Program-made: the position numbers and the translations under genes
The notes under the pieces: generated by a model
Databases searched by the model: none
Seen by the model: the letters and a program-made list of their open reading frames with translations, nothing else
What the model was told of the DNA's origin: nothing
NCBI RefSeq assembly: GCF_023612255.1
Contig: NZ_CP063231.1
Span: 1,098,001-1,162,000 of the forward strand
Reading direction: 5' to 3'
Origin: Luteibacter flocculans
GTDB taxonomy: Bacteria > Pseudomonadota > Gammaproteobacteria > Xanthomonadales > Rhodanobacteraceae
Length of the DNA stretch: 64,000 nucleotides
In this document: piece after piece, positions 48,097-63,407 of the stretch
Numbering within the stretch: position 1 is the stretch's first letter
Layout of the letters: every line of letters begins with the position of its first letter

Positions 48097-48171
48097 GGGC
48101 GGTTAGCTCAGCGGTAGAGCACTACCTTGACATGGTAGGGGTCACAAGTTCGATCCTTGTACCGCCCACCA
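48097..48171 (+). tRNA. tRNA-Val (GAC)
   Basis: 75 bases with CCA encoded. Acceptor GGGCGGT pairs with ACCGCCC, anticodon stem CTACC/GGTAG with loop TTGACAT (GAC at 48129-48131), T-loop AGTTCGATCC. Intact cloverleaf. Confidence 0.98.
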
Positions 48172-58839: not shown

Positions 58840-58868
58840 TTGACACGGCAGCGGCCGTGATCTAGCTT
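58840..58868 (+). promoter_or_regulatory. promoter of thrS
   Basis: A perfect TTGACA (58840-58845) and TAGCTT (58863-58868) 17 bases apart. Transcription would begin near 58875, giving a 150-base leader before thrS. Confidence 0.6.
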
Positions 58869-58925
58869 TTGCCCGATATCCACGAGACGAAGGTGGCCCG
58901 CGGCAACGCCGGCCGAGTGTGCGAC

Positions 58926-58952
58926 ATGCGGACTACGCGCTTCCCAACCTGA
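58926..58952 (+). CDS. putative thrS leader peptide with three Thr codons
   Basis: ATG at 58926, eight residues MRTTRFPT, then TGA. Three of seven post-initiator codons are Thr (ACT, ACG, ACC), in the leader of threonyl-tRNA synthetase and 28 bases before the terminator arm. The Shine-Dalgarno is weak (GAG about eight bases away); a GTG three codons upstream in frame is an alternative start. Reads as a control peptide, not a functional protein. Confidence 0.5.
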   Translation: MRTTRFPT

Positions 58953-58980
58953 TCCCACGCCACGTCTTCGTCATCTTTCG

Positions 58981-59006
58981 AAGGGCGCCTGGCGCCCTTT
59001 TTGTTT
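58981..59006 (+). terminator. intrinsic terminator (attenuator) in thrS leader
   Basis: AAGGGCG (58981-58987) pairs with CGCCCTT (58993-58999) over CCTGG, followed by T-rich TTTTTGTTTG. The only plus-strand transcript here comes from the thrS promoter, so this terminator lies between promoter and coding region. A competing CTTCG (58966-58970)/CGAAG (58979-58983) pairing would disrupt its 5' arm. Confidence 0.8.
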
Positions 59007-59024
59007 GTCCGGAACCACGCATCC

Positions 59025-60926
59025 ATGATCCAGATCACGCTACCCGACGGCAGCCAGCGCCCGTTCGAGCATCCCGTCACCGTACAGGACGTCGCCGCCT
59101 CGATCGGCGCCGGTCTCGCCAAGGCTACGCTCGCCGGCAAGGTCGACGGCAAGCTCGTCGATGCCAGCTTCCTCATCGACCATGACGCCGCGCTCGAGAT
59201 CGTCACCGAGAAGAGCCCGGAGGCGCTGGATATCCTGCGCCACTCCACGGCTCATCTTCTCGGCCAGGCCGTGCAGCGCCTGTTCCCCGGCGCGCAGGTC
59301 ACGATCGGCCCGGTGATCGACAACGGCTTCTATTACGACTTCGCGTACGAACGCCCCTTCACGCCCGACGACCTGGAAGCCATCCAGGCGGAAATGGAGA
59401 AGATCGTGAAGGAGCAGATTCCCGTCACGCGCTCGGTGAAGAGCCGCGACGAGGCCATCCGCTTCTTCCGCGACATGGGCGAGGAATACAAGGCGCAGAT
59501 CATCGAGGGCATTCCGTCCAACGAAGAGCTCTCGCTTTATACCCAGGGCGAGTTCACCGATCTGTGCCGCGGCCCGCACGTGTCCAACACCGGCAAGCTG
59601 CGCGCGTTCAAGCTCATGAAGGTGGCCGGTGCCTATTGGCGCGGCGATTCCAACAACGCGATGCTGACCCGCATCTACGGCACCGCCTGGCTGAACGACA
59701 AGGATCTCAAGGCCTACCTGCTGCAACTCGAGGAGGCCGAGAAGCGCGACCACCGCCGCATCGGCAAGCAGCTCGATCTGTTCCACCAGCAGGAAGAAGC
59801 GCCGGGCATGGTGTTCTGGCACCCGAAGGGCTGGGCCATCTGGCAGGCGGTCGAGCAGTACGTTCGTGGCGTCTATCGCCGCAGCGGCTACCAGGAAGTG
59901 CGCGGCCCGCAGATCATGGACGTGAGCCTGTGGAAGAAGTCCGGCCATTGGGACAACTACCAGGAAAACATGTTCTTTACCGAGTCGGAAAAGCGTACCT
60001 ATGCGCTTAAGCCGATGAACTGCCCGGGCCACGTGCAGATCTTCAACACCAATCTGCACAGCTATCGCGACCTGCCGATCCGCTACGGCGAATTCGGTGG
60101 CTGCCATCGCAACGAGCCCTCGGGCGCGCTGCACGGCATCATGCGCGTGCGCGCCTTCACCCAGGACGACGGGCACATCTTCTGCACGCCCGCGCAGATC
60201 GAGGGCGAGGTCGCGGCCTTCCACGCGCAGGCCATGAAGGTCTACGACGATTTCGGCTTCAACGACATCGCGATGAAGATCGCGCTGCGTCCGGACAAGC
60301 GGATCGGCTCGGACGAGGTTTGGGACAAGGCCGAGCACGCGCTGCGCGCGGCGCTGTCGGCTGCCGGTGTTGCCTGGGAGGAACTGCCGGGTGAGGGTGC
60401 CTTCTACGGCCCGAAGATCGAGTACCACATGAAGGACTCCATCGGCCGCGCCTGGCAGGTAGGCACGATGCAGGTCGATTTCATGATGCCCGAGCGCCTG
60501 GGGGCCGAGTACGTCGACGAGCACAGCCAGCGCCAGCACCCGGTCATGCTGCATCGGGCCATCGTCGGGTCGATGGAGCGCTTCATCGGCATCCTGATCG
60601 AGCACCATGCGGGCTTGCTTCCGACGTGGCTTGCCCCCATTCAGGCGGTGGCGTTCAGCATCACCGACGCTCAGGCCGATTATGTGCGTGAAGTGGTGCA
60701 AACCCTTGTCGGACAAGGCTTCAGGGTGGATGCCGATTTGCGCAACGAAAAAGTCGGATATAAAATCCGCGAGCATACGTTGCAGAAGGTTCCCTATCTC
60801 ATCGTGGTCGGAGACCGCGAAAAGGAAACGGGTACCATTTCCGTACGTACCCGCGGGGGCGAAGACCTCGGCAGCATGCCGGTGGCACAATTCGTCGCAC
60901 GTTTGGAAGCCGAGACCCGCCGCTAG
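59025..60926 (+). CDS. thrS: threonyl-tRNA synthetase
   Basis: 633 residues from the ATG at 59025 ([11 protein letters not shown]), giving the correct TGS-domain N-terminus; the frame is open upstream through the attenuator. Order: TGS (1-60), editing domain with [12 protein letters not shown], class II core with motif 2 region [15 protein letters not shown], and anticodon-binding domain ending about 630. It charges tRNA-Thr. infC follows after 44 bases in the same operon. Confidence 0.97.
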
Positions 60927-60970
60927 GCCGCGGGTCCGGTATTGAGATCATTCTTCTGGAGGATAGCGGT

Positions 60971-61498
<528 letters not shown>

Positions 61499-62342: not shown

Positions 62343-63407
<1,065 letters not shown>

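What the first reader, a model, noticed from the sequence alone, without database searches (positions are those of the whole stretch)
58840..59025. Possible threonine leader-peptide attenuator controlling thrS
Within 150 bases the leader has a TTGACA promoter, a peptide MRTTRFPT (three Thr codons of eight), then an intrinsic terminator upstream of threonyl-tRNA synthetase. A CTTCG/CGAAG pairing can compete with the terminator arm. In E. coli thrS is controlled translationally by an mRNA operator, so ribosome-stalling attenuation here would be a different mechanism. The weak Shine-Dalgarno of the peptide is the main doubt.
Basis: partly seen in the sequence, partly recalled or inferred. Interest (0 to 1): 0.72.

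Follow-up and report, generated by a model that had tools for sequence, protein, structure and literature searches.

The report
Threonine leader-peptide switch before thrS
Before the gene for threonyl-tRNA synthetase lies a conserved RNA switch in which a ribosome reading a tiny threonine-rich peptide probably decides whether the gene is transcribed, where E. coli uses an enzyme-binding RNA for the same gene.

Summary
The leader holds TTGACA-17-TAGCTT, an ATG ORF (MRTTRFPT) and an intrinsic terminator 24 nt before thrS. Of 199 thrS upstream regions, 76 carry the motif G[CT]GACATG; all 76 have a short ORF there. Among 63 distinct ORFs codon 3 is Thr in 63, codon 4 in 53, written with all four Thr codons. 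A Thr ORF followed by a terminator occurs in 35 of 37 genomes of the window's family, 25 of 33 of a second family and 33 of 53 betaproteobacterial records, but in 2 of 99 genomes of other families. Of those 99, 34 have an E. coli-like anticodon-mimic hairpin instead. In the window's family that region also pairs with the segment after the stop codon; in the second family it does not. The antiterminator is weakly supported. A 2010 paper not held here may already predict it.

The parts
58840..58868 (+). Promoter: TTGACA, 17 nt, TAGCTT
   Evidence: same layout in 32 of 37 genomes of the family; not found by the consensus scan; no transcript data.
58886..58897 (+). Region 1: GACGAAGGTGGC, holding the leader peptide's Shine-Dalgarno AGGTG (58891-58895)
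   Evidence: GGTGG invariant in 38 of 38; pairs better with its own region 2 than with those of other species (0 of 5000 permutations reach it).
58894..58915 (+). Hairpin P1 between Shine-Dalgarno and start codon
   Evidence: 6 of 6 pairs change on both sides in the second family (31 sequences), 2 of 8 in the window's family (38).
58926..58952 (+). Leader peptide ORF MRTTRFPT with stop; control codons ACT ACG at codons 3 and 4
   Evidence: codon 3 Thr in 63 of 63 distinct ORFs, codon 4 in 53 of 63.
58955..58972 (+). Region 2: can pair with region 1 or with region 3
   Evidence: with region 1; with region 3, weak.
58979..58992 (+). Region 3: CGAAGGGCGCCTGG, 5' arm and loop of the terminator, partner in the possible antiterminator
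   Evidence: folds.
58980..59006 (+). Intrinsic terminator, stem 58980-59000 and T-rich tail
59025..60926 (+). thrS, threonyl-tRNA synthetase, followed by infC, rpmI, rplT, pheS on the same strand
   Evidence: TIGR00418, E 1.2e-214; infC and pheS also matched. rpmI and rplT are named from the ORF list by recall; co-transcription not tested.

Best explanation
It is a threonine-specific, ribosome-mediated transcription attenuator of thrS. Ribosomes load at AGGUG, which the P1 hairpin brings near AUG, and read AUG CGG ACU ACG. With enough Thr-tRNA the ribosome finishes the eight codons and leaves; region 2 then pairs with region 1 (which also hides the Shine-Dalgarno), region 3 is left to the terminator's 3' arm, and RNA polymerase stops 24 nt before thrS. 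With little Thr-tRNA the ribosome waits at codons 3-4, just after initiation, and keeps region 1 from pairing; region 2 pairs with region 3 before the 3' arm is made, the terminator does not form, and thrS is transcribed. Shown by sequence: conserved Thr ORF, promoter, terminator, P1 hairpin and, in the window's family, region 1-region 2 pairing. Inferred: translation of the peptide, stalling, the antiterminator, and the response to threonine.
For: Codon pattern: 61 of 63 codon-3 Thr are ACT, while ACT is 1 of 98 Thr codons in six window genes. Thr is the amino acid most often found in such ORFs in each of the five groups that have them, and shuffles give means of 0.00-0.10. Contrast with 99 genomes of other families: 2. 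A covariance model of the leader finds one copy per matched genome in 105 of 250 genomes of the order; in all 42 whose thrS place was known it lies 22-174 nt before thrS (21 of the 42 were in the model). That varying distance fits transcription control better than hiding of the thrS ribosome site. P1 covariation. Region 1-region 2 coevolution in the window's family. Folds of the window's RNA before the terminator's 3' arm: with ribosome and region 1 masked, 7.1 expected region 2-3 pairs; with the ribosome at the stop, 5.1 region 1-2 and 0.5 region 2-3 pairs.
Against: Antiterminator barely better than shuffles: mean z 0.51, 3 of 38 at p<=0.05 in the window's family; 1.13, 11 of 31 in the second; a duplex test gave mean z 0.03 and -0.50. 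At equilibrium the terminator still wins downstream of a stalled ribosome (5.3 terminator against 3.6 region 2-3 pairs), so the model needs timing; and if region 1 stays free beside the stalled ribosome, region 1-2 keeps 2.8 pairs. Region 1-2 pairing is absent in the second family (4505 of 5000 permutations reach it) and modest in betaproteobacteria (82 of 5000, 5 of 34 singly); with a longer region 1 the window's family also gives less (mean z -0.97, 5 of 35). 4 of 76 anchored leaders have no terminator found (L033, L037, L142, L160) and 10 of 63 ORFs lack Thr at codon 4. Whole-leader fold no better than shuffles (z -0.36). Effective spacing after P1 is about 12 nt, long for a Shine-Dalgarno. 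No expression data.
Confidence: 0.85

Rival explanations
1. The leader is an E. coli-type operator: ThrRS binds a tRNA-Thr anticodon mimic next to the thrS ribosome site and blocks translation.
For: E. coli thrS has it, and 34 of 99 other-family genomes carry a hairpin of 6 or more pairs with CGT or GGT in the loop close to thrS. The loosest test also gives 7 of 37 and 11 of 33 in the two main families.
Against: Those hits are mostly the terminator or other hairpins; the tighter test leaves 1 of 37 and 5 of 33 (the 5 are terminators), the strict pattern 1 of 37 and 0 of 33. P1 loops carry no Thr anticodon. The operator needs neither a Thr ORF nor a terminator.
Confidence: 0.03
2. The terminator ends a separate small RNA and thrS has its own promoter; the ORF is incidental.
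For: A leader ended at 59006 would look like a small RNA of about 130 nt.
Against: Only 18 nt lie between the T tract and the thrS start. Thr codons are conserved with synonymous changes. One copy per genome, before thrS in 42 of 42 checked.
Confidence: 0.04
3. Leader-peptide control of another kind: the ribosome on the ORF acts through Rho, RNA decay or the thrS ribosome site, or senses translation in general, not Thr-tRNA.
For: In the window the terminator ends 24 nt from thrS, close to its ribosome site; the antiterminator is weakly supported; in the second family no region 1-2 pairing is seen.
Against: Codon identity is Thr in groups with unlike leaders (MTPRTTT, MFKRTTTTRTSR, MKTTTKN). 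The element's 3' end lies up to 174 nt from thrS.
Confidence: 0.08

Closest known systems
Ribosome-mediated attenuators (trpL, hisL, thrL; pheM before pheST in E. coli; recalled)
   Same: Short ORF with codons for the cognate amino acid, then possible competing hairpins and an intrinsic terminator; pheM serves an aminoacyl-tRNA synthetase.
   Different: Target is thrS; control codons at positions 3-4, right after the start; region 1 is the leader's own Shine-Dalgarno in the window's family; the ribosome site is split by a hairpin.
E. coli thrS translational operator (reviewed in PMC11088916 and used in PMC3858243; passages seen)
   Same: Same gene. Its ribosome site too is interrupted by a hairpin (PMC3858243).
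   Different: There the hairpin is bound by ThrRS and precedes thrS itself; here a hairpin splits the ribosome site of a leader peptide, carries no anticodon mimic, and control would be on transcription.
Hairpin-shortened Shine-Dalgarno spacing of phage T4 genes 38 and 25 (review PMC3014915, passages seen)
   Same: A hairpin between Shine-Dalgarno and AUG shortens a long spacing (22 to 5 and 27 to 11 nt there; about 30 to 12 here).
   Different: Here it serves a leader peptide, next to the segment that can pair with the region after the stop codon.
Rfam Thr_leader RF00506
   Same: Thr-rich leader peptide and terminator.
   Different: No match at this place.

Membership tests
Ribosome-mediated transcription attenuators | Leader ORF rich in codons of the cognate amino acid, conserved as codons | tested here: met
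Ribosome-mediated transcription attenuators | Intrinsic terminator between ORF and gene | tested here: met
   terminator in 35 of 37 of the family; pairs vary and are kept
Ribosome-mediated transcription attenuators | Antiterminator that excludes the terminator | tested here: inconclusive
   Forms in staged folds; weak against shuffles
Ribosome-mediated transcription attenuators | Upstream pairing that frees the terminator (1:2) | tested here: inconclusive
   Supported in the window's family, not in the second family
Ribosome-mediated transcription attenuators | Read-through responds to charging of the cognate tRNA | not testable with these tools
   Needs RNA or reporter data
E. coli-type thrS operator | Anticodon-arm mimic (CGU/GGU loop) just before the thrS ribosome site | tested here: not met
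   the strict pattern was written after looking at the sequences
Rfam Thr_leader RF00506 | Score above the family cut-off at this place | tested here: not met
   No hit up to E 10; none at this place in the genome up to E 1
T-box | Rfam T-box match in the leader | tested here: not met
   No match
Hairpin-shortened Shine-Dalgarno spacing | Conserved Shine-Dalgarno far from AUG, with a covarying hairpin between | tested here: met
   hairpin-less relatives L141, L155, L038, L041 have AGGTG 4 nt from ATG
Hairpin-shortened Shine-Dalgarno spacing | Breaking the hairpin lowers translation | not testable with these tools
   Needs a reporter

The most novel reading that the evidence does not exclude
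The sensing surface is the leader's own Shine-Dalgarno. A ribosome stalled within the first four codons still covers the Shine-Dalgarno region, and that decides between region 1-2 pairing (off) and region 2-3 pairing (on); the P1 hairpin spaces the ribosome site so that it can double as region 1. This start-proximal design, in a leader that stands where other Gammaproteobacteria have a tRNA-mimic operator, is not excluded for the window's family. (Lowered from 0.40 after one search showed no region 1-2 pairing in the second family.)
Probability: 0.35. Interest if true: 0.72.

Novelty: new variant of a known kind. Interest (0 to 1): 0.6.

Why it matters
thrS is the textbook case of an aminoacyl-tRNA synthetase controlled by mimicry of its tRNA. 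Here two large groups of Proteobacteria seem to use a ribosome-based sensor at the same gene, while many other families keep the mimic, so an exchange of sensors can be followed across genomes. The split ribosome site and control codons right after the start make a simple, testable variant of attenuation. As thrS stands first in the gene order thrS-infC-rpmI-rplT-pheS, the switch could tie threonine supply to several translation genes.

Tried and rejected
Considered and rejected: E. coli-type operator, T-box, Rfam Thr_leader. A GTG start nine bases upstream (GTG TGC GAC ATG) is in frame in the window but reads GCG or GGG in many relatives, so ATG is preferred. Whole-leader fold stability gave nothing. 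Duplex energies with long partners were noisy: L116 has eleven consecutive pairs yet p 0.42 (0.000 by helix length). A region 1 inside the betaproteobacterial ORF: 14 of 34 with a 6-mer complement, one of the 34 a mis-picked ORF (L073); not pressed. The two-sequence alignment served nothing.

Dropped or limited rows: for the structure alignments, leaders without a detected terminator and three duplicate records (L053, L159, L164) were left out, giving 38 and 31 sequences. Class sample: 99 of the 104 matched genomes; left out G000, G037 and three whose match begins inside the protein (G124, G130, G171). Second family: 32 of the 57 matched genomes (30 of them the best-scoring) plus G057. One search keeps the best 80 of at least 582 hits, so its records are no even sample; I sorted them into groups by title, and L058, titled only Gammaproteobacteria, was put with Xanthomonadales. 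Some of those records are the same strains as genomes in f1 and f2.

Not found in print, some of which list only part of their hits (15 of 53, 10 of 26). Naville and Gautheret 2010 (PMC2965389) was seen in passages; it names threonyl-tRNA synthetase only for E. coli; its tables were not seen. PMC4833913, PMC10272879 and PMC3766115 were seen in passages. Lopatovskaya et al. 2010 (pmid 20198868; seen as a reference) and Vitreschak et al. 2004 are not held.

Full report
What is there. The window (G000, contig 1, 1098001-1162000) carries thrS at 59025-60926 (TIGR00418). I call its family f1 (Rhodanobacteraceae-like) and the second family f2 (Xanthomonadaceae-like: L055 Luteimonas and L057 Pseudoxanthomonas have the same leaders as f2 genomes). 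These names are my inference from record titles; genome handles bear none.

Upstream of thrS all features of the finding are present. The terminator ends 24 nt before the ATG of thrS. The promoter was not reported by the consensus scan, but TTGACA, 17 or 18 nt, [TC][AT]NNNT stands there in 32 of 37 f1 leaders.

Coding evidence. Of 199 upstream regions 76 hold G[CT]GACATG, and all 76 have a short ORF from that ATG. Among 63 distinct ORFs codon 3 is Thr in 63 (ACT 61, ACG 2) and codon 4 in 53 (ACC 32, ACG 15, ACT 3, ACA 3); the stop is codon 9 in 51. ACT is 1 of 98 Thr codons in six window genes. A constant ACT may also reflect a need of the RNA; I cannot separate the two.

Chance and breadth. 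The test was an ATG ORF of 5-16 codons with two or more Thr besides Met, and a terminator within 110 nt after its stop: f1 35 of 37, f2 25 of 33, other families of the order 15 of 20, named Xanthomonadales records 8 of 12, named betaproteobacterial records 33 of 53; against other families of the class 1 of 29 and other named records 1 of 15. Twenty rounds of shuffles gave means of 0.00-0.10. Arg is second in f1 (21 of 37) and in betaproteobacteria (22 of 53), because of MRTTR and MTPRT. A further 70 genomes of other families gave 1, a betaproteobacterial-type MTPRT peptide, so 2 of 99 in all.

The f1 covariance model found one match in each of 105 of 250 genomes of the order at E 1e-4. In f1, 49 genomes match and 3 are listed without a match; 125 non-matching genomes are not listed, but the list runs by kinship. 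Many f1 matches are by construction, as their leaders built the model. For the 42 genomes whose thrS place was known, 42 matches lie 22-174 nt before thrS; 21 of these were not in the model.

The operator elsewhere. E. coli thrS has GTGATCTTTCGTGTGGGTCAC before its ribosome site, like the published anticodon-like domain (review passages). Three tests were made. A loose one (5 or more pairs, CGT in a loop of 7-9, within 90 nt) gave 7 of 37 f1, 11 of 33 f2, 4 of 20, 14 of 29 other families, with shuffle rates of 0.06-0.11. A tighter one (6 or more pairs, CGT or GGT) gave 1 of 37, 5 of 33 (all terminator hairpins), 0 of 20, 4 of 53 betaproteobacterial, 34 of 99 other families and 6 of 15 other named records. 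A strict pattern, written after looking, gave 1 of 37, 0 of 33, 0 of 20, 0 of 12, 1 of 53, against 11 of 29, 19 of 70 and 7 of 15. So leader peptide and operator look mutually exclusive between groups; many genomes of other families have neither by these tests.

The ribosome site of the peptide. GGTGG is invariant in 38 of 38 f1 leaders. AGGUG matches the complement of the 3' end of 16S rRNA (recalled) but lies 30 nt from AUG, with hairpin P1 between. In f2 6 of 6 P1 pairs show changes on both sides and 90.3% of cells are paired; for P1 and terminator together 0 of 500 shuffles reach the observed covariation. In f1 P1 is nearly constant, 2 of 8 pairs changed on both sides. Four relatives without this hairpin (L141, L155, L038, L041) have AGGTG 4 nt from ATG. 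Ten loci, six of other families, two of f2 (L165, L169) and two named Lysobacteraceae records, show a third form: a purine-rich stretch, a hairpin GUUC/GAAC, GUCC/GGAC or GCCC/GGGC, then AUCAC[CG]AUG. A hairpin that shortens the spacing is known from phage T4 (review passages). I take that as the function of P1; it is inference.

Competing pairings. In 38 f1 leaders region 1 (58886-58897) pairs better with its own region 2 (58959-58972) than with those of other species (mean -14.1 against -12.6 kcal/mol; 0 of 5000 permutations; 1 of 5000 in the 24 nearest genomes) and than with shuffled partners (mean z -1.81, 19 of 38 below -1.64). Permutation does not remove relatedness, so few independent events may lie behind this. 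With a longer region 1 the excess falls (mean z -0.97, 5 of 35; control +0.30). In f2 it is absent: mean z -0.17, 0.02, and the longest helix is no longer than chance (4505 of 5000 permutations). In betaproteobacteria it is modest: 82 of 5000 permutations, 5 of 34 singly, with ten consecutive pairs in L116.

Region 2 can also pair with region 3 (58955-58970 with 58979-58992), taking the terminator's 5' arm. Folds of the window's RNA, ended before the terminator's 3' arm: free RNA is split (3.1 region 1-2, 3.9 region 2-3 pairs); ribosome on the Thr codons, region 1 free, 2.8 and 5.2; region 1 masked too, 0 and 7.1; ribosome at the stop, 5.1 and 0.5. Complete RNA: free, 8.1 region 1-2 and 8.8 terminator pairs; downstream of a stalled ribosome 3.6 region 2-3 and 5.3 terminator pairs, so at equilibrium the terminator is still favoured and the model needs the antiterminator to form first. 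Against shuffles the antiterminator is slightly favoured in f1 and more so in f2, not at all in a duplex test. This is the weakest link.

Reading. The best explanation is Thr-dependent ribosome-mediated attenuation (0.85): ORF, codons, terminator and position rest on sequence evidence, the switch itself on inference. The finer claim, that a stalled ribosome acts by holding the Shine-Dalgarno region, is less sure (0.35, lowered). Membership in the general kind is met on ORF and terminator, open on the alternative pairings, untested on function.

Novelty. No paper found in the library describes a thrS leader-peptide attenuator. Lopatovskaya et al. 2010, whose title covers aminoacyl-tRNA operons, is not held and may predict it; if so the split ribosome site and the start-proximal control codons would be the new part. 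On present evidence I rate it a new variant of a known kind.

Noticed in passing
window 60958-61030: infC seems to start at ATC 60971 (GGAGG at 60958-60962, then in frame ATTDNKGNRKNNDIRVPK), not at the listed GTG 61019; a rare start codon would fit the known self-control of IF3 (recalled).
   Followed up: no
window 62353-62387: A strong hairpin (GGGGAGAAGG/CCTTCTCCCC) followed by ATTCTTTTTT lies between rplT and pheS, about 27 nt before the likely pheS start at 62415; a possible second attenuator, without an obvious Phe leader peptide.
   Followed up: no
window 48097-48171; 75 of 199 loci by an anticodon-arm motif: tRNA-Val(GAC) seems to stand shortly before the thrS leader or gene in many Proteobacteria (motif only, not checked with a tRNA finder); in the window it lies about 10.7 kb upstream, with recD and an epimerase-like gene among those in between.
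   Followed up: partly
L203, L204, L218, L224, L241, L253 and others: Operator-type hairpins of other Gammaproteobacteria sometimes carry GGT instead of CGT in the loop, matching another Thr anticodon.
   Followed up: no
L055, L141, L146, L148, L152, L153, L158, L163: In the second family the terminator loop often reads CTCGT, like the operator loop, and CGAGG upstream can pair with it (L163: CCACGAGG/CCTCGTGG). It may be part of an antiterminator or a ThrRS contact.
   Followed up: partly
L026, L027: Between terminator and thrS these relatives carry copies of a palindromic stretch CCGGCCATCCATGGCCGG.
   Followed up: no
G000:C1:827157-827222 (L272): A sub-threshold match to Rfam Thr_leader (35.7 bits, cut-off 55) elsewhere in the genome; the same search also gives sub-threshold hits in most control genomes; not examined.
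   Followed up: no
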